Shown here: piece by piece, positions 367-44,328 of the stretch
Numbering within the stretch: position 1 is the first letter of the stretch
How the letters are laid out: each line of letters begins with the position of its first letter
From: Bacteroidales bacterium
GTDB taxonomy: Bacteria; Bacteroidota; Bacteroidia; Bacteroidales; UBA932
Assembly (NCBI GenBank): GCA_017471025.1
Contig: JAFUWX010000059.1
Coordinates: 1 to 52,474, forward strand
Direction of reading: 5' to 3'
DNA length: 52,474 nt
Program-made: the position numbers and the translations under genes
The notes under the pieces: model-generated
What the model was told of the DNA's origin: nothing
What the model saw: only the letters and a program-made list of their open reading frames with translations
The model's database searches: none

Positions 367-387
367 CACGCTGAATTTACCAAGGCG

Positions 388-485
388 CCGCAGGTGCAAA
401 GATAACCTGGAAAGCCGTCGGCCGGAGCCGAAGGCCCCATGCATCCCCGTAGCAGTCATTTGAAATGCCGGCAGGATTTGTTATT
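388..485 (+). repeat. Copy 1 of a ~98-bp direct repeat (degenerate right end)
   Basis: Bases 388-485 match 548-645 at a constant offset of 160 bp, with a handful of substitutions. The left end carries GGTGCAAAGATAAC, as in copy 2. The right end reads GTTATTCTGG where copy 2 has GTTATCTTTGCACC. The terminal inverted repeat and the promoter-like TATCTTTG are therefore lost in this copy. The sequence between the copies (486-547) is unique. Confidence 0.8.
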
Positions 486-19300: not shown

Positions 19301-20556
19301 CGCATCACTATGACAAGAAGTGCTTCGAAGGCATTTACAACGTGCCCGATGAGGACATCTGGGCGGTCCGTCGGCTGATGAAGAAAGACCTCATCATGCA
19401 GGTCAAGAAGCGTCTCTCGGATCCGGCCATGGGCAACCACTATTCCCCGGCCCAGATTGTCACGATCAAGGAGAATCTCCGCGATGACGTGCTGACCATC
19501 GGTTTTGCCCGCCGCTTCGCGACATACAAGCGCGCCACCCTGCTGTTCAGCGACCTGGACCGTCTCGACGCCATCGTCAACAACCCCAAGATGCCGGTCC
19601 AGTTCATCTTCGCCGGCAAGGCCCATCCGGCCGACCGGGCCGGCCAGGACCTCATCAAGCGGATTGTCGATATCTCCAAGCAGGAGCGCTTCCTGGGCAA
19701 GATCGTTTTCGTGCCCGGATATGACATCACCCTGGCCAAACGGCTTGTACAGGGCGTCGATGTATGGATGAACAACCCGACCCGTCCGCAGGAAGCTTCC
19801 GGTACGTCCGGCGAGAAAGCGGCGATGAACGGCGTCATGCATTTCTCCGTCCTCGACGGCTGGTGGGTGGAAGGCTACAAGGAGGGCGCCGGCTGGGCGC
19901 TGCCGATGGAGCGCACCTACGACGACCAGAATTACCAGAACGAGCTTGACGCAGCCACGATTTACGGTATCATCGAGAATGAGATCGCCCCGGTCTATTA
20001 CGATGTGGATTTCCGGCTCGGCCGTTCTCCCCGGTGGATTACCTATATCAAGAACACGATCGCCCAGGTGGCCTGCAATTTCACCACCAACCGCATGCTG
20101 ACCGACTACTGCGAGCAGTACTATGTCCCGCAGGCGGAGCGTACGGGCAAGTTGGTGGCCGACGACTTCAAGGTGGCCCGCGAGATTGCCGCCTGGAAGC
20201 GCAGGGTCGAGCGGGAGTGGCAGAACATCGACGTGGTATCCTATGCCCGTCCGGACGATGCCTACACCCTTTCCCAGGCGAACCCGATGCACTCCGTGGT
20301 CGAGCTCCATATCGGCGACCTTGATCCGGAAGATATCGGCGTGGAGATGCTCTTCTGCACCAGCGATGTGCGCGGCAACCTGCATATCCAGGACAAGTGT
20401 GCCTACAAGGTCGTTTCTTTCGAGGACGGCACGGCCCGCTATGAAGCGGACATCTTCCCGGAACGCACCGGTATGTACCAGGTGGCGACCCGGATCTATC
20501 CGAAGAACCCCTTGCTGCCGCACAGGCAGGACTTCGCGCTGGTAAGATGGCTGTAG
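16312..20556 (+). CDS. Fused glycogen synthase (GT3) - alpha-glucan phosphorylase (GT35)
   Basis: This 1414-residue protein joins two opposing activities. Residues 1 to about 560 are a GT3 (eukaryotic-type) glycogen synthase with EVCNKVGGIYTVI, HEWQTGAGLLYLK and YYEPWGYTPLEAVAFK, where Glu439 and Glu447 form the E-x7-E pair. Residues from Met561 are a GT35 phosphorylase of the short bacterial/archaeal type. It includes the N-terminal LSKNLWWCWN, MEYGLDSSLKIYSGGLGILAGDYLKE and SGTSGEKAAMNG, with Lys1169 as the predicted pyridoxal-phosphate lysine. The start is a TTG at 16312, because the nearby ATG at 16298 is out of frame and soon stops. The end overlaps ribF by 10 bases. Similar fusions are known to me in Bacteroidales annotations. 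Confidence 0.9.
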   Translation: MKKEVNLTPDYLFEVSWEVCNKVGGIYTVIATKSLYLKSQLGRHHILIGPDVWMGTESHPDFIEDVHLYGGWKKKAAEEGLRLRIGRWNVPGRPTAILVDFRQFIPSQNEILAECWTRFGVDSISGDWDYKENALFGYVAGMVIASFYRYNMTGSEKVVAQFHEWQTGAGLLYLKTTELPVATVFTTHATVIGRCIAGNGLPLYDNMASYNGDEMARRFGVVARHSLEKISARHADVFTTVSDITAKECAQFLERPVDIVTPNGFENSFTPATEEEYDAKRAAARARLIEVASAMSGEPVAKDAILMGIGGRYEYRNKGIDVFLDALGALQAEGYCGREIQAFIMVPGGHNGPDRALVSKMVRGDNAQYTVQVSHSLMYPENDQITRRFRELGLVNALGSRIKVYFIPSYLNGTDGIFNMPYYDLLVGMDLAMFPSYYEPWGYTPLEAVAFKVPTFTTTLAGFGLWVRDRFADKAHPGITVSERTDANYSSVVADVKARILEIASLDREGRKVYMASAQEAASIALWENQIIYYNKAYSLAIRKVIAERGEFPKFTNDTQMNYQKIEINAPSWKSVMVTRHLPEALKGLETLSKNLWWCWNDSAKALFKTVDAQVWHESGHNPVAILDTVSIKRFNELAKDKAFVAQVNAVMAEFDAYMALKTQRTDPSVAYFCMEYGLDSSLKIYSGGLGILAGDYLKETSDMNVNLVAVGLLYRYGYFTQVLSASGDQVARYDAQDFMKIPAEPVYDAEGNWMTTSVAFPGRTLTARIWKVAVGRTDLYLLDTDFEANRDEDRSVTHQLYGGDWENRLKQEILLGFGGVRALRALGLNPQIYHCNEGHAAFIGLERMREYIQQDNLSFAEAMEVVRASSLFTTHTPVPAGHDAFDEGFMRKYLSDIPQRLNISWEQFMGLGKINAADPHEKFSMSFLAANMSQNVNGVSMLHGKVSQEIFDRMYPGYLPEELHVSYVTNGVHYPTWASKEWKQLHAKVFGEAFQTHHYDKKCFEGIYNVPDEDIWAVRRLMKKDLIMQVKKRLSDPAMGNHYSPAQIVTIKENLRDDVLTIGFARRFATYKRATLLFSDLDRLDAIVNNPKMPVQFIFAGKAHPADRAGQDLIKRIVDISKQERFLGKIVFVPGYDITLAKRLVQGVDVWMNNPTRPQEASGTSGEKAAMNGVMHFSVLDGWWVEGYKEGAGWALPMERTYDDQNYQNELDAATIYGIIENEIAPVYYDVDFRLGRSPRWITYIKNTIAQVACNFTTNRMLTDYCEQYYVPQAERTGKLVADDFKVAREIAAWKRRVEREWQNIDVVSYARPDDAYTLSQANPMHSVVELHIGDLDPEDIGVEMLFCTSDVRGNLHIQDKCAYKVVSFEDGTARYEADIFPERTGMYQVATRIYPKNPLLPHRQDFALVRWL

Positions 20557-21419
20557 TAGCCACAGGCTTTTTCGACGGTGTCCATCTCGGGCACCGTCGT
20601 GTTGTCAGCGAGCTGGTCCGTCAGGCATCCGCCCGCGGGGAGGAGGCGCTGGTCGTCACGTTCTGGCCGCATCCGCGTACCGTCTTGCAAGACGATGCCC
20701 GGACGCTCCGGCTCCTGAATTCCTTGGAAGAAAAGAAGGCACTGCTTTCCGCCCTGGGCGTGGACCGGGTGGAGGTGCTGGATTTCTCCCGGGCGTTCAG
20801 CCGGCTGTCCACCCGGGCGTACCTGGACTTGCTCCGCGAGCGCTTTGACGCTACCTGTGTGCTGCTGGGCTATGACAACCGGATCGGATCGGACCTGCTG
20901 GCTGCCCCGCAAGCGGCCCGGTTGGCGCACGAATCCGGCCTGGAGGCGCAGGTGCTGGAGCCGCTCTCGCTGGGCGGCGTGACGGTCAGTTCGACCAAAA
21001 TCCGTACGGCCCTTGGCGAGGGCCGCGTGGAAGACGCCAGCGCGATGCTGGGCTATCCCTATATGCTGCACGGCGTCGTGGTGGCCGGCAACCGCATGGG
21101 CAGGACCCTGGGCTTTCCGACGGCCAATATGCAACTCTATGAACCGCTCAAACAATTGCCCGGGAATGGGGTGTATTGCGTTGAGGCAGAGGTGCTTGGA
21201 CGCAAATATCGGGGCATGTGCAACGTGGGCGTCCGGCCGACCGTAGCGGGAAGCGGGGCCCTGACCATCGAGACCCATATCCTCGACTTTGACGAGGATA
21301 TTTATGGCCTGGACATGCGCGTCCGCTTCCTTCGCTTCCTCCGTCCCGAACGCCGCTTCGACTCTCTCGACGCCCTCCGCACCCAACTCGCCGCCGACCG
21401 CTCCGATGCCCTAAGATAA
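20547..21419 (+). CDS. ribF: Bifunctional riboflavin kinase / FAD synthetase
   Basis: The 290-residue protein makes FMN and then FAD from riboflavin. The N-terminal adenylyltransferase domain has GFFDGVHLGHRRV (the HxGH-type nucleotidyl motif) and VTFWPHPR. It continues with LLGYDNRIGSD and SSTKIRTAL. The riboflavin kinase domain follows (about 170-285), with AGNRMGRTLGFPTANM and the metal-binding NVGVRPTV. It is slightly shorter than the E. coli enzyme (~313 residues). The ATG lies 10 bases inside the end of the phosphorylase gene, so it is translationally coupled to the glycogen operon, with no obvious metabolic reason. Confidence 0.93.
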   Translation: MAVVATGFFDGVHLGHRRVVSELVRQASARGEEALVVTFWPHPRTVLQDDARTLRLLNSLEEKKALLSALGVDRVEVLDFSRAFSRLSTRAYLDLLRERFDATCVLLGYDNRIGSDLLAAPQAARLAHESGLEAQVLEPLSLGGVTVSSTKIRTALGEGRVEDASAMLGYPYMLHGVVVAGNRMGRTLGFPTANMQLYEPLKQLPGNGVYCVEAEVLGRKYRGMCNVGVRPTVAGSGALTIETHILDFDEDIYGLDMRVRFLRFLRPERRFDSLDALRTQLAADRSDALR

Positions 21420-32198: not shown

Positions 32199-32216
32199 AG
32201 GTTTTTTAGACATTTC

Positions 32217-32340
32217 GAAAAATCAGCTACCTCATTTCAACAACCTTCGCTTCGCTCATCCCTCCCAAACAAGTTTGGGCCCCTCCCATTCATGTGGCCA
32301 TGGGCGGCCACAGGTTTTGAAACGAGGTAGCTGATTTTTC
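32217..32340 (+). repeat. Dispersed inverted-repeat element, copy 1
   Basis: A 17-bp perfect outer stem (32217-32233 with 32324-32340) extends inward through one mismatch and one bulged C to about 28 bp. Inside are two hairpins: CCCAAAC-AA-GTTTGGG (32264-32279) and TGTGGCC-ATGGGC-GGCCACA (32293-32312). The same element recurs in reverse orientation at 42289-42411. Between the outer stems the copies differ at only two positions (32246 and 32258). No coding frame or target duplication is seen. It may terminate lspA transcription. Confidence 0.85.
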
Positions 32341-32365
32341 TCCATTTAGTAATATTTTTCGTGTC

Positions 32366-40935: not shown

Positions 40936-42279
40936 ATGGCAAATATCCTTGCGAAGTGCTTCGGTTTCGATAGCACAAAACACTCAGTTCGTACTGAGAT
41001 CGTCGCCGGTATCACCACCTTCCTGACGATGGCCTATATCCTGGCCGTCAACCCCGGCATCTTCAGCGCCCTGGACGGCATGCCCGGCGGGGCCGTATTC
41101 ACCGCCACGGCGCTCGCCGCCATCATCGGTACCCTCTGCATGGCCATCCTGGCCAAGAAGCCTTTCGCCCTGGCCCCCGGCATGGGCCTGAACGCCTTCT
41201 TCGTGTTCACCGTCTGCCTGGGCATGGGCTACTCCTGGCAGTTCGCCCTGACGGCCGTTTTCATTGAAGGTATCCTCTTCATCATCCTGACCCTCACCAA
41301 GGTCCGTACCTGGCTGATCAATGCCATCCCGGGTACGCTGAAAAAGGCCATCGGTGCGGGTATCGGCCTGTTCATCGCCTTCATCGGCCTGCAGAACGCC
41401 GGCATCATCGTCAATTCCGACGCCACCCTCGTCACGCTCGGTTCCCTGACCCAGGGCAAGGCCCTCGTGGCCATGCTCGGCCTCTTCATCACCGCTGCGC
41501 TGGTGATGCTGAAGGTCAAAGGCGGCATGCTGATCGGTATCCTCGTCACCACCGTGATCGGCCTGTTCATCAAGGACCCGGCCACCGGTGAGGCCGTCAC
41601 CCAGCTGATCCGGGGCGAAAACGGCAACCTGCGCTTCCTGTCCATGCCGGACAGCGTGGCCCCGATTTTCTGCCAGTTCGAGTGGGCGAATGTCCTGAGC
41701 TGGGATATGCTCGTGGTCGTGCTGACCTTCCTGTTCATCGATATGTTCGACACGATGGGTACCATCATCGGCGTACACCAGACCACCGGCCTTGCGGACA
41801 AGCCCGACGAGATTGACGGCGTGGAGCAGATGTTCCTCTCCGACTCCATCGCCACCGTCGCCGGCGCCTGCCTCGGTACCTCCACCACGACGACCTATGT
41901 CGAGAGCGCTTCCGGTATCGCTGCCGGCGGCCGCACCGGCCTGACCGCCTTCTCCGCCGCCGTGTGCTTCGCCCTGGCCCTCTTCTTCTCGCCGATTTTC
42001 CTGGCCATCCCGGGCGCTGCGACGGCCCCGGCCCTGATTATCGTCGGCGTGATGATGATGCCTTCCGTCAAACGGATCCACTGGGACGACTATTGCAAGG
42101 CCATCCCTGCTTTCCTGACCATCGTCATGATGCCGTTGGCCTATTCCATCTCCGACGGTATCCTGATCGGCGTCATCGCCTACGTGATCACCCACGCCAT
42201 CAGCGGCAAATTCAAAGAGATCTCCATCCCGATGTGGGTGCTCGCCGTGTTGTTCATCTGCAAGTATATCTTCATGTAG
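40936..42279 (+). CDS. NCS2 purine permease, AzgA/PbuG-like (guanine/hypoxanthine)
   Basis: The 447-residue inner-membrane transporter has family motifs of the AzgA branch: VRTEIVAGITTFLTMAYIL near the N-terminus, AGMGLNAFF-like PGMGLNAFFVF, IPGTLKKAIGAGIGLFIAFIGLQNAGI and LFIDMFDTMGT. GTSTTTTYVESASGIAAGGRTGLTA also matches. It probably imports adenine, guanine or hypoxanthine. It follows the DUF5020 gene after 25 bases, so all three are likely one operon. The second copy of the inverted-repeat element begins 9 bases after the stop. Confidence 0.92.
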   Translation: MANILAKCFGFDSTKHSVRTEIVAGITTFLTMAYILAVNPGIFSALDGMPGGAVFTATALAAIIGTLCMAILAKKPFALAPGMGLNAFFVFTVCLGMGYSWQFALTAVFIEGILFIILTLTKVRTWLINAIPGTLKKAIGAGIGLFIAFIGLQNAGIIVNSDATLVTLGSLTQGKALVAMLGLFITAALVMLKVKGGMLIGILVTTVIGLFIKDPATGEAVTQLIRGENGNLRFLSMPDSVAPIFCQFEWANVLSWDMLVVVLTFLFIDMFDTMGTIIGVHQTTGLADKPDEIDGVEQMFLSDSIATVAGACLGTSTTTTYVESASGIAAGGRTGLTAFSAAVCFALALFFSPIFLAIPGAATAPALIIVGVMMMPSVKRIHWDDYCKAIPAFLTIVMMPLAYSISDGILIGVIAYVITHAISGKFKEISIPMWVLAVLFICKYIFM

Positions 42280-42288
42280 GAACGAAGA

Positions 42289-42411
42289 AATAATAAGTTA
42301 CCTCGTTTCAAAACCTGTGGCCGCCCATGGCCACATGAATGGGAGGGGCCCAAACTTGTTTGGGAGGGACGAGCGAAGCGAGGGTTGTTGAAATGAGGTA
42401 ACTTATTTTTC
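42289..42411 (-). repeat. Dispersed inverted-repeat element, copy 2 (reverse orientation)
   Basis: This is the reverse complement of the 32217-32340 element. The outer stem is 13 bp perfect (42292-42304 with 42395-42407), then a T-T mismatch and two more pairs. Compared with copy 1, two stem pairs have changed on both sides: C-G to A-T (42295/42404) and C-G to T-A (42298/42401). The interior, including both small hairpins, is otherwise conserved. It lies after the purine permease gene, just before a terminator. Confidence 0.85.
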
Positions 42412-42429
42412 GGAGTGGCTAAAAATAGA

Positions 42430-42465
42430 ACGGGGATGACCTGAAGTCCAGGCCATCCCCGTTTT
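42430..42465. terminator. Bidirectional terminator between the purine permease and GH2 genes
   Basis: ACGGGGATG (42430-42438) pairs with CATCCCCGT (42454-42462), with a short inner CCTG/CAGG helix. It is preceded by AAAAATAG and followed by TTT, so it works on paper in both directions for these convergent genes. Confidence 0.7.
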
Positions 42466-42481: not shown

Positions 42482-44272
42482 CTACTGGAGCGTAGCGATT
42501 ACGTCGCGGTTGATGTCAGCCAGCTGCTTCTCATCCATCTTGACCAAAGCCCGGTCATACGTCATCAGACCGTTCACCTCGATCTCCACATCGGTCGTCT
42601 GCGTATAGACCGCCGCCGCGCAGCCCTGCCGGATCAGCTCCTTCAGCTGCTCGGCATACTCCCGATACTGGGCCAGCACCTGCTCGCCGCTATGGTGCTC
42701 GATATAGCCCCAGTTGCGGTCAGGCTGCCACAGATGACCCTCCACCGGATAACCGATACCGCCATACTCGCCCAGGACATTGACCATGCCCTCCTCCCAC
42801 AGCGGCATCTCCGCATTGGGATAATGGTGGACGTCGAGGATATCCCCGCAGCCCTTGACGAAATTGCCGCCCGAAGACTGGTTGATCAGCCGGGTCGGGT
42901 CCTGCTCCCGCGTGAAAGCGACCGCCTTCTCCGTCTCGAACTGCGCCCAGGCCTCGTTGAACGGCACCCAGACCACGATGCTCGGATGGTTCTTCAGCTG
43001 GGCGATGATTTCGCCCCACTCCTTGAAATACGTCGCCTTCGCCTCGTCGGTGACCGCCCAATCCACACCATTGTAACCATAAGCGTCCCAGCGGGTTTCG
43101 CTGTTGTCATCCATGCTCGGCATATCCTGCCAGACCAGCATGCCCAGCTTGTCGCACCACCAGTACCAACGCTCCGGCTCCACCTTGATATGCTTGCGGA
43201 TCATATTGTATCCCAGCTCCTTGGTCTTGCGGATATCATAGACCAGCGCCTCGTCCGTCGGGGCGGTATAGAGCCCGTCCGGCCACCAGCCCTGGTCCAG
43301 CGGACCGAACTCGAAGAGCGGCTCCCCGTTGAGGGCCATGCGCTTGCGTCCTTCGCCGACGGCGCTGATGCTACGCAGGGCGGAATAACCCTTCACGGCA
43401 TCCACGGTCTTTCCGTCCCGCACCAGGCGGATCTGGATATCATACAGCCAAGGGTCGTCCGGCGTCCACAATTTCGGATCCTGCACCTTGATGACCGCGG
43501 CCCTGTCCGGATCCGTCACGACCACCTGTCCGTCCGCCTCGACCTCCACGCGGTCGCCCTCCTGGGCGCCTTCCACGACCGGCAGGACGGTGAACGTGGA
43601 TCCGGGCACGTCGGCCACCGCCTCATAGCGGACGATATAGCTCTCGGGGACGGTCTCCGTCCAGACGCTCTGCCAAATGCCGGTGACGGCCGTGTACCAG
43701 ATGCCCTCCGGCTCGCGGACCTGCTTGCCGCGCGGCTGCTTGCCATTGTCCGTACCGTCCAGCACGCGCACGACCAGCTCCTGCTTCCCGCTGCCTTTCA
43801 GGCAAGGGGTCACGTCCAGGGTGAAACGGGTATATCCGCCGCTGTGCTCCCCGGCCTTGATGCCGTTGACCCAGACCTCCGCCTGCCAATCGACGGCGTC
43901 GAAATGCAGCAGCTGCCTTCCGCCTGTGGCGGCCTTGAAGCTGGTCTTATACCACAAGGCGTTCTCCTCGCCGACCGTCCGGCCCACGCCGGAAAGGGCG
44001 GATTCCGGGGCGAAGGGGACGAGGATACGGCCGTCCCACTGCGCGGGTTGGGGGGATTCCGCCGGTACGATGGCATAGTCCCACAGGCCGTTCAGCGAAG
44101 TCCATTGCCCGTCCCGGACCATGCTCGGACGGGGATACTCTCCCAAAGTGTTCTGCGGATCGACCTCGTCCGCCCACCTTGTCATAATTCTCCCTTCAAC
44201 GGGTTTCCAGCCATTCCCGCAGGCTGCGACGGCAAGAAGGGCCGTCATCCATGAAAAAATCCGTTTGACCAT
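42482..44272 (-). CDS. GH2-family beta-glycosidase lipoprotein
   Basis: The 596-residue protein has a lipobox AVAAC (Cys18), so it is membrane-anchored. A sugar-binding jelly-roll domain (about 45-215; SLNGLWDYAI, YKTSF, WVNGIKAGEHSGGYTRF) comes first, then an Ig-like domain and the GH2 barrel from about 300. The predicted acid/base is Glu440 in VPFNEAW and the nucleophile Glu502 in LGEYGG. Specificity (galactosidase, glucuronidase, mannosidase) cannot be told. Met at 44272 gives the signal peptide; the longer frame upstream lacks one. It is the last gene of a minus-strand hydrolase cluster. Confidence 0.88.
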   Translation of the reverse strand: MVKRIFSWMTALLAVAACGNGWKPVEGRIMTRWADEVDPQNTLGEYPRPSMVRDGQWTSLNGLWDYAIVPAESPQPAQWDGRILVPFAPESALSGVGRTVGEENALWYKTSFKAATGGRQLLHFDAVDWQAEVWVNGIKAGEHSGGYTRFTLDVTPCLKGSGKQELVVRVLDGTDNGKQPRGKQVREPEGIWYTAVTGIWQSVWTETVPESYIVRYEAVADVPGSTFTVLPVVEGAQEGDRVEVEADGQVVVTDPDRAAVIKVQDPKLWTPDDPWLYDIQIRLVRDGKTVDAVKGYSALRSISAVGEGRKRMALNGEPLFEFGPLDQGWWPDGLYTAPTDEALVYDIRKTKELGYNMIRKHIKVEPERWYWWCDKLGMLVWQDMPSMDDNSETRWDAYGYNGVDWAVTDEAKATYFKEWGEIIAQLKNHPSIVVWVPFNEAWAQFETEKAVAFTREQDPTRLINQSSGGNFVKGCGDILDVHHYPNAEMPLWEEGMVNVLGEYGGIGYPVEGHLWQPDRNWGYIEHHSGEQVLAQYREYAEQLKELIRQGCAAAVYTQTTDVEIEVNGLMTYDRALVKMDEKQLADINRDVIATLQ

Positions 44273-44320
44273 AATTGTGTTGATTAGGGCAGGGCGGGCC
44301 GAGACCGCCGCTTGCCAAGG

Positions 44321-44328
44321 CAAAGTTA
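44321..44328 (-). promoter_or_regulatory. Candidate -7 box upstream of the GH2 gene
   Basis: On the minus strand TAACTTTG matches TAnnTTTG, about 50 bases before the GH2 start. The -33 element is unclear, so the gene may also depend on read-through from the upstream genes. Confidence 0.35.

What the first reader, a model, noticed from the sequence alone, without database searches (positions are those of the whole stretch)
32217..32340. A ~123-bp dispersed element in two inverted copies, each right after a gene
The sequence at 32217-32340 recurs as its reverse complement at 42289-42411. Between the outer stems (90 bases) the two copies differ at two positions only (32246 and 32258). Each copy starts within 9-19 bases of the stop codon of the preceding gene (lspA, purine permease). 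Each can fold into a long stem enclosing two hairpins, a three-way-junction-like layout. I recognise no family for it. It could be a REP/BIME-like or MITE-like element, a terminator family, or an RNA.
Basis: seen in the sequence. Interest (0 to 1): 0.72.

Follow-up and report, generated by a model that had tools for sequence, protein, structure and literature searches.

The report
Mobile palindromic element of gut bacteria
The repeated 124-base sequence belongs to a family of small mobile hairpins in gut Bacteroidales that sit between genes and, in related species, in frame inside essential protein genes, with a conserved knotted core on long stems whose sequence can differ from site to site.

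Summary
The window's genome holds about 19 cores. Counting that genome, 47 of 61 sampled genomes of its genus carry the core (up to 41 copies), 5 of 295 in an order sample (four from other genera or families), and 1 of 395 in a phylum sample.

The conserved unit is not the 124 bp but a core of about 55-75 nt with a hairpin and a covarying H-type pseudoknot, on a stem of about 20-30 bp. In two genomes examined copy by copy, many copies with near-identical cores stand on unrelated, near-perfect stems. In the window's genome, in part of one of those two, and in distant genomes, copies share stems.

In relatives the element lies in open frames inside ribF, aroE, aroB, ksgA, rsmE, tilS, trmH, truB and others, in both orientations and several frames, with empty counterparts in other species. 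The core is inverted at 3 of 6 sites compared between two species.

It works like Rickettsia palindromic elements but is not shown to be one. Best reading: a selfish, non-autonomous mobile element recognised through its folded core. The enzyme and the origin of the stems are unknown.

The parts
32211..32346 (+). copy 1, with the flanking hexamers (CATTTC ... TCCATT) that resemble those of other own-genome copies
32217..32240 (+). copy 1, left outer arm of the stem (24 nt)
32241..32259 (+). copy 1, P2 region (variable, weak hairpin)
32258..32313 (+). copy 1, conserved core found by covariance model R1 (77.6 bits)
32264..32279 (+). copy 1, P3 hairpin CCCAAACAAGTTTGGG
32285..32304 (+). copy 1, pseudoknot stem S1: 32285-32289 (CCCAT) with 32300-32304 (ATGGG)
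32293..32312 (+). copy 1, pseudoknot stem S2: 32293-32299 (TGTGGCC) with 32306-32312 (GGCCACA)
32317..32340 (+). copy 1, right outer arm (24 nt)
42289..42411 (-). copy 2, between the convergent purine permease (40936-42279 +) and a glycoside-hydrolase-like ORF (42482-44323 -)
42315..42370 (-). copy 2, conserved core (R1, 76.5 bits)
42388..42407 (-). copy 2, left outer arm (20 nt)
42292..42311 (-). copy 2, right outer arm (20 nt)
20544..21404 (+). ribF of the window, without insert: empty counterpart of the ribF loop that is filled in 15 of 35 ribF genes compared

Best explanation
It is a non-autonomous, probably selfish mobile element of Bacteroidales. SHOWN: (1) a dispersed family; (2) a conserved core of about 55-75 nt with P3 and an H-type pseudoknot kept by paired changes; (3) a long palindromic stem around the core, which in G016 and G023 is unrelated between many copies with near-identical cores; (4) copies between genes and, in open frames, inside conserved protein genes, with empty counterparts in relatives; (5) inversion of the core relative to its flanks between two species at 3 of 6 sites. 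INFERRED: the core is recognised as a folded single strand (RNA or ssDNA), on the strand opposite to the CCCTCCC strand, and inserted at new sites by an enzyme acting in trans; the arms are formed or replaced at insertion and then diverge while staying paired; inside genes the element is translated as an extra loop of about 35-50 residues and is kept only where that is harmless. In the window's genome one complete hairpin, stem included, was amplified into intergenic gaps.
For: Family. Core: on 63 distinct rows from loci not in the model's alignment, S1 pairs in 99.7% of cells and 181 cells change on both sides, against 57 in shuffles and at most 21 in slid controls; R1 was built without S1 pairs. 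Stems: ten G023 copies share 98% of the last 28 core bases while arm identity falls 0.70, 0.37, 0.34, 0.23 per 6-nt step outward; left arms at six orthologous G023/G047 sites are identical at 140 of 158 positions, aligned by eye, so arms are not simply hypervariable. Genes: aroE and aroB loops empty in some species and filled in others; Pfam matches on both sides of the insert, or spanning it, in ribF, ksgA, an ABC ATPase, rsmE, aroE, aroB, trmH, tilS, truB and a FAD-dependent protein. Gain: C7:37010 of G023 is empty in G047 and G399; C18:23943 is empty in G047 and no element is seen there in G399, whose right flank does not align. Inversion. Strand: in 46 non-redundant stems A.C outnumbers G.U 32 to 11 on the CCCTCCC strand (p 0.002), in the same direction for sense-gene, antisense-gene and other copies; on the other strand these are G.U wobbles.
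Against: No mobilising gene found: PF01797 in 31 of 61 and PF00078 in 18 of 61 genus genomes, neither in G016. Target duplications only suggestive (TAA, AATACA, AGTAC). Origin of arms unexplained: no match elsewhere in G016 or G023, no excess in flanks (8.0 against 8.2 nt in shuffled arms). Shared stems are common: the own genome, 16 of 35 copies in G016, and two further G016 copies with similar stems; in G088, G186 and G238 copies share one or two stems, in G268 stems are only partly alike. The innermost 6 nt of arms are partly shared. At C6:19877 a 7-bp block changed in both arms between species, so arms can be rewritten in place. In the structure control, the number of further pair types is not above shuffles (31 against 29.6). 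The strand asymmetry is modest. My ORF test looks for open frames; only 11 of 32 G023 copies sit in ORFs with a recognised domain, and in 6 of these the matched domain lies to one side of the insert.
Confidence: 0.56

Rival explanations
1. An ordinary MITE: fixed terminal inverted repeats recognised by the transposase of an autonomous relative; unrelated stems are old terminal repeats that drifted in a paired way, or come from several unrelated founder families whose cores recombined.
For: Shared stems in the own genome (16 full copies), in 16 of 35 G016 copies and in G088, G186, G238. ribF arms diverge strongly between species while staying paired. L083 shows recombination inside the core.
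Against: In G023, paralogs with near-identical cores have unrelated arms beyond 6 nt, whereas orthologous arms stay 89% identical. Two probable G023-specific insertions have arms without relatives in that assembly.
Confidence: 0.27
2. A host-useful RNA device (terminator, attenuator, mRNA-stability or regulatory element) conserved for its function at gene ends.
For: Strong conserved structure with pseudoknot covariation; intergenic copies near gene boundaries; A5/T5 at the stem ends in the window's genome.
Against: Both orientations and open-frame positions inside unrelated housekeeping genes. In 16 copies inside ORFs read in the CCCTCCC direction, arm mismatches are A.C 14 against G.U 3, the kind that would not pair in the host mRNA. 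Patchy occurrence: 14 of 61 genomes without a match.
Confidence: 0.1
3. The element inserts into pre-existing perfect palindromes, which explains the site-specific arms.
For: Many arms are near-perfect and unique per site. YPAL/RU-2 elements are reported to insert in or next to dyad symmetry (PMC2229807, passages).
Against: Empty counterparts (C18:23943 and C7:37010 in G047; C6:37235 and C14:23361 in G399; aroE, aroB) show no such palindrome to the eye.
Confidence: 0.04
4. A self-splicing or ribosome-bypassed insert, so that host proteins lack the inserted residues.
For: Highly structured sequence with a pseudoknot inside essential genes.
Against: The coding copies verified by Pfam keep an open frame through the insert, which splicing or bypass would not require; my search favoured open frames, but no broken gene was seen at the 6 non-coding G023 copies where Pfam named both neighbours.
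Confidence: 0.03

Closest known systems
Rickettsia palindromic elements (RPE) and Wolbachia palindromic elements
   Same: About 100-150 bp, palindromic, in intergenic regions and in frame inside conserved protein genes (RPE: passages of PMC10969869 and PMC2229807; Wolbachia elements: seen only as phrases in a search listing).
   Different: Another phylum of bacteria. Here the conserved part is a pseudoknotted core, stems can be site-specific, several frames and both strands are used (RPEs are reported to encode a conserved peptide), and the core inverts.
MITEs (Correia/NEMIS, ERIC, RUP, YPAL/RU-2)
   Same: Small non-autonomous dispersed palindromes, some fused in frame to genes (PMC2229807, passages).
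   Different: Most of those have fixed terminal inverted repeats; here shared stems mark sub-families only.
REP/BIME with RAYT
   Same: Dispersed structured repeats near gene ends.
   Different: REPs are 20-40 bp (start of the abstract of PMC3733652 in a listing). No Y1 transposase in high-copy G016; copies also lie in genes.
Coding palindromes of Nematomorpha mitochondria
   Same: Perfect inverted repeats maintained inside translated genes (PMC6649704, abstract and outline).
   Different: There both arms encode conserved host residues; here stem and core are inserted DNA with a core shared among unrelated genes.
Integron attC sites (recalled, not from a call)
   Same: Sites of variable sequence recognised as one folded DNA strand.
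   Different: No cassette array or integrase association was examined; the conserved core here is a pseudoknot.

Membership tests
Rickettsia palindromic element | palindrome of about 105-150 bp | tested here: met
   124 bp in the window
Rickettsia palindromic element | in-frame insertion in conserved protein genes | tested here: met
   in relatives; the window's own two copies are intergenic
Rickettsia palindromic element | conserved encoded peptide | tested here: not met
   three forward frames and reverse frames give different peptides
Rickettsia palindromic element | sequence homology to RPE families | not tested
   no RPE sequence was fetched or compared
MITE | fixed terminal inverted repeats across the family | tested here: not met
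   stems differ between genomes and between many copies in G016 and G023; shared within sub-families
MITE | target-site duplication | tested here: inconclusive
   TAA, AATACA, AGTAC suggested at three sites
MITE | autonomous partner sharing the ends | tested here: inconclusive
   PF01797 and PF00078 do not track presence; other transposase families not tested
REP/BIME-RAYT | 20-40 bp unit with Y1 transposase in the same genome | tested here: not met
   unit size; G016 with 35 copies has no PF01797 match
Rfam RNA families | score at or above a family's gathering cut-off | tested here: not met
   0 matches in the window; best relaxed match 17.8 bits against a cut-off of 140
intrinsic terminator | G+C-rich hairpin followed by a T run | tested here: inconclusive
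   own-genome stems end in T5; stems in G016/G023 have no consistent T run; the scanner allows loops of 3-8 nt only, so its silence on the element says little
integron attC | conserved core sites and integron integrase nearby | not tested
   family description recalled

The most novel reading that the evidence does not exclude
A class of mobile element whose unit of movement is a pseudoknotted core of about 60 nt only, and which can gain a new, site-specific, near-perfect palindrome of 20-30 bp at insertion that is copied neither from the donor copy, nor from the target, nor from elsewhere in the genome. It is recognised as one folded strand and settles in frame in essential genes.
Probability: 0.35. 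Interest if true: 0.9.

Novelty: new variant of a known kind. Interest (0 to 1): 0.76.

Why it matters
In-frame palindromic elements are best known from Rickettsia. Here a gut lineage (200 genomes of the genus, one per species, were drawn from a larger group) carries one in ribF, aroE, aroB, ksgA and other core enzymes, with filled, empty, inverted and double states in related species. That makes it testable how mobile DNA adds loops to essential proteins. A conserved core on unrelated, near-perfect stems is a mechanistic puzzle that transposition schemes known to me do not obviously explain.

Tried and rejected
Rfam at gathering and relaxed thresholds gave nothing relevant; in five relatives' loci it gave tRNAs only. 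Arms as an inverted copy of the target: fits part of C1:37172 and perhaps the outermost 8 bp in aroB of G399, but not C18:23943 or C6:37235. Arms copied from elsewhere in the genome: 36 left arms (16 of 35 G016 copies, 20 of 32 G023 copies; short, weak and TCTCGGC-stem copies left out) gave 70 matches, all at the arms of the copies themselves. Arms from nearby flank: no excess (23 of 32 G023 copies). Partner proteins PF01797 and PF00078 do not fit. Carriage on viruses or plasmids: 0 exact pattern matches in IMG/VR, no match in phages or plasmids. Structure prediction of RibF was not available. A second filled/empty comparison of ten G023 sites was only partly read: trmH, EamA, tilS and ksgA are filled in G047; the YhhN stretch that I displayed was the wrong one, and the other sites were not displayed. 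Alignment A2 (39 of 40 copies listed; L114 left out) came from a pattern that fixes several core columns, so its invariant columns are partly by construction; A4 (58 chosen loci, not all held) is the independent check, though many of its loci had been found with R1. Literature: open-access full text only; no paper on such an element in Bacteroidales was seen in these listings. Papers opened: passages of PMC10969869 and PMC2229807, abstract and outline of PMC6649704.

Full report
1. Observation. The window holds one long inverted pair, 32203-32339 and 42289-42425 (137 nt, 93%). The interiors differ at 32246 and 32258; the stems differ by paired changes. Both copies fold beyond shuffles on either strand, the strand opposite to CCCTCCC more stably (-63.2 and -57.1 against -55.7 and -45.9 kcal/mol). 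No Rfam family matches. Below, F is the strand reading CCCTCCC...GGGCCCCTCCC (the + strand for copy 1) and R its complement.

2. Own genome. A DNA search gives 35 matches at E <= 0.001, including short matches between the two arms of single copies. Covariance model R1 finds 19 cores at E <= 1e-4 in this 2.0 Mb, 81% complete assembly (18 and 14, which scored fewer candidates). The 16 longest copies share one stem and similar flanking hexamers, with paired differences in the stem. None lies inside a called ORF; 15 of 16 have an ORF boundary within 100 nt (mechanical calls).

3. Relatives. In a genus sample that includes the own genome, 43 of 61 match the window copy by DNA, the relatives mostly over the interior only; with R1 it is 47 of 61, up to 41 copies. 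In an order sample 5 of 295 match: the own genome, one of another genus of the family, three of other families; one further same-genus genome there had none. In a phylum sample only the own genome matches (1 of 395). No match in IMG/VR by exact pattern, nor in phages or plasmids. Relatives by LspA are uncultured Bacteroidales or Bacteroidia, many with ruminant organs in their titles.

4. Core structure. A2 (39 sequences) and A4 (74 matches, 63 distinct rows, no locus shared with A2) support P3 and a pseudoknot S1/S2. In A4, S1 pairs in 99.7% of cells; one S1 pair is changed on both sides in 35 of 63 rows; 181 cells change on both sides, against 57 in shuffles and at most 21 when partners are slid; the number of further pair types is not above shuffles (31 against 29.6) (A2). 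S1 was not part of R1. Variants seen include CCCAT/ATGGG, CCCGT/ACGGG, CCCTC/GAGGG, CCCAC/GTGGG and CCCCC/GGGGG. P2 is variable and weakly supported.

5. Stems. In G016 (8 contigs, 98% complete, 35 copies) 16 copies share one stem; most of the others, and most of the 32 copies in G023, have stems of about 19-33 bp without evident similarity to one another, except that G016 C2:15405 and C2:421707 have similar stems. Some copies are truncated or have weak stems. For ten G023 copies of one core type, mean pairwise identity of the last 28 core bases is 98%, but arm identity is 0.70, 0.37, 0.34 and 0.23 for successive 6-nt steps away from the core. Left arms at six orthologous G023/G047 sites keep 140 of 158 positions. 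Thirty-six arms used as query match only the arms of the copies themselves, and flanks hold no more matches than for shuffled arms. In distant genomes stems are often shared: G088 (copies in a longer repeat, at or near contig ends), G186 and G238 have one or two stems each, G268 has partly similar ones. So hairpins can move as wholes; unrelated stems under near-identical cores are shown for G023 and G016 only.

6. Genes. In relatives the core lies in open frames. Gene names from my reading of translations are: ribF, dnaX, an ABC ATPase (just after the Walker A motif), ksgA (both orientations), aroE (both orientations, in different species), aroB (antisense in G023, sense in G399, a double insert in G027), rsmE, trmH, tilS, murB, truB, tsaB, a FAD-dependent oxidoreductase. 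Pfam names the families. Matches lie on both sides of the insert, or span it, in ribF, ksgA (L134), the ABC ATPase, rsmE, aroE, aroB, trmH, tilS, truB and the FAD-dependent protein. In dnaX, murB, TrmB, YhhN, EamA, His_Phos_2, radical SAM and ksgA of G023 the matched domain lies to one side; in tsaB the match ends about where the insert lies. Of 35 ribF genes compared, 15 hold the core by R1 and 20 do not, L044 looking like a remnant. In G023, 21 of 32 copies span an ORF of at least 120 aa. I scanned the ORFs of 13 of these: 11 copies have a Pfam domain in the ORF with the core not merely in an upstream extension; the ORFs of the other 8 were not scanned. Of the 11 copies outside such ORFs, Pfam named both neighbours at 6, always different families; at 5 one or both sides had no family or no sequence. 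So no broken gene was seen where it could be judged. Empty loops: aroE (25 aa from NP to GGLYML, GGLPML in L260) in L250, L251, L253, L254, L260; aroB in L247 and L260; ribF in the window.

7. Gain, loss and inversion. Ten G023 sites were looked up in G047: 6 filled, 3 empty (C1:37172, C7:37010, C18:23943), 1 split by a contig end. C7 is also empty in G399; for C18 no element is seen in G399, but its right flank does not align; at C1, G399 carries another element with other arms. So C7 and C18 are best read as gains in the G023 lineage. At 3 of the 6 filled sites the core is inverted between G023 and G047 with the arms in place; at a fourth, G047 lost the part between two CCCTCCC repeats. L083 ribF joins halves of two element types and its arms do not pair.

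8. Which strand matters. In 46 non-redundant stems (of 104 measured) the non-Watson-Crick cells on F are A.C 32, G.U 11, other 36 (p 0.002; 19 loci with more A.C, 5 with more G.U). By mechanical ORF class the ratio is 14:3 in 16 copies in F-direction ORFs, 3:0 in 4 in R-direction ORFs, 15:8 in 26 others. The P3 pair next to CCC is non-standard in 34 of 62 rows, mostly A.C to the eye, though many rows are related. On R these are G.U wobbles. This points to R as the constrained strand independent of host-gene direction, against selection on host mRNA and for a property of the element itself. The effect is modest.

9. Mechanism. Shown: family, core structure, unrelated stems under near-identical cores in two genomes, open-frame positions, empty sites, inversion, strand asymmetry. 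Inferred: recognition of the folded R strand, movement in trans, arms formed at insertion, selfish maintenance, translation of the insert as a loop (36-51 residues longer than the empty loop for single inserts in aroE and aroB). Not known: the enzyme, the source of arm sequence, the size of target duplications.

10. Placement. It works like Rickettsia palindromic elements (passages of PMC10969869 and PMC2229807) but has no single conserved peptide and is built differently, so I file it as a new variant of protein-coding palindromic elements, not as an RPE. Nothing similar for Bacteroidales appeared in the open-access searches named in Tried and rejected.

Noticed in passing
window 383-484 and 543-644: A 102-nt direct repeat, 92% identical, start-to-start 160 nt, beginning near GCAGGTGCAAAGATAAC.
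   Followed up: no
L049, L082, L096 (ribF), variants in L067 and L071; EamA region of G447 (L334): A second small repeat (ATTCTTCGCTGCGCTCAGAATGAC type; peptide HSERSEES) sits in the same ribF loop or the same EamA gap as the element, so these places collect several kinds of insert.
   Followed up: partly
window 42429-42463, - strand: A separate canonical terminator-like hairpin lies between copy 2 and the convergent gene.
   Followed up: yes
L249, aroB of G027: Two elements in opposite orientation inside one open frame.
   Followed up: partly
L083 ribF: A chimera: the left part looks like one element type and the right part like another, and the arms do not pair.
   Followed up: no
L114 (G048:C199): A palindrome of at least 45 bp near the start of a short contig, possibly an assembly artefact.
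   Followed up: no
L285 (G399) against G023:C1:37172 (L268): The gap after a class II tRNA synthetase gene holds different elements in two species, which suggests an insertion hot spot.
   Followed up: partly
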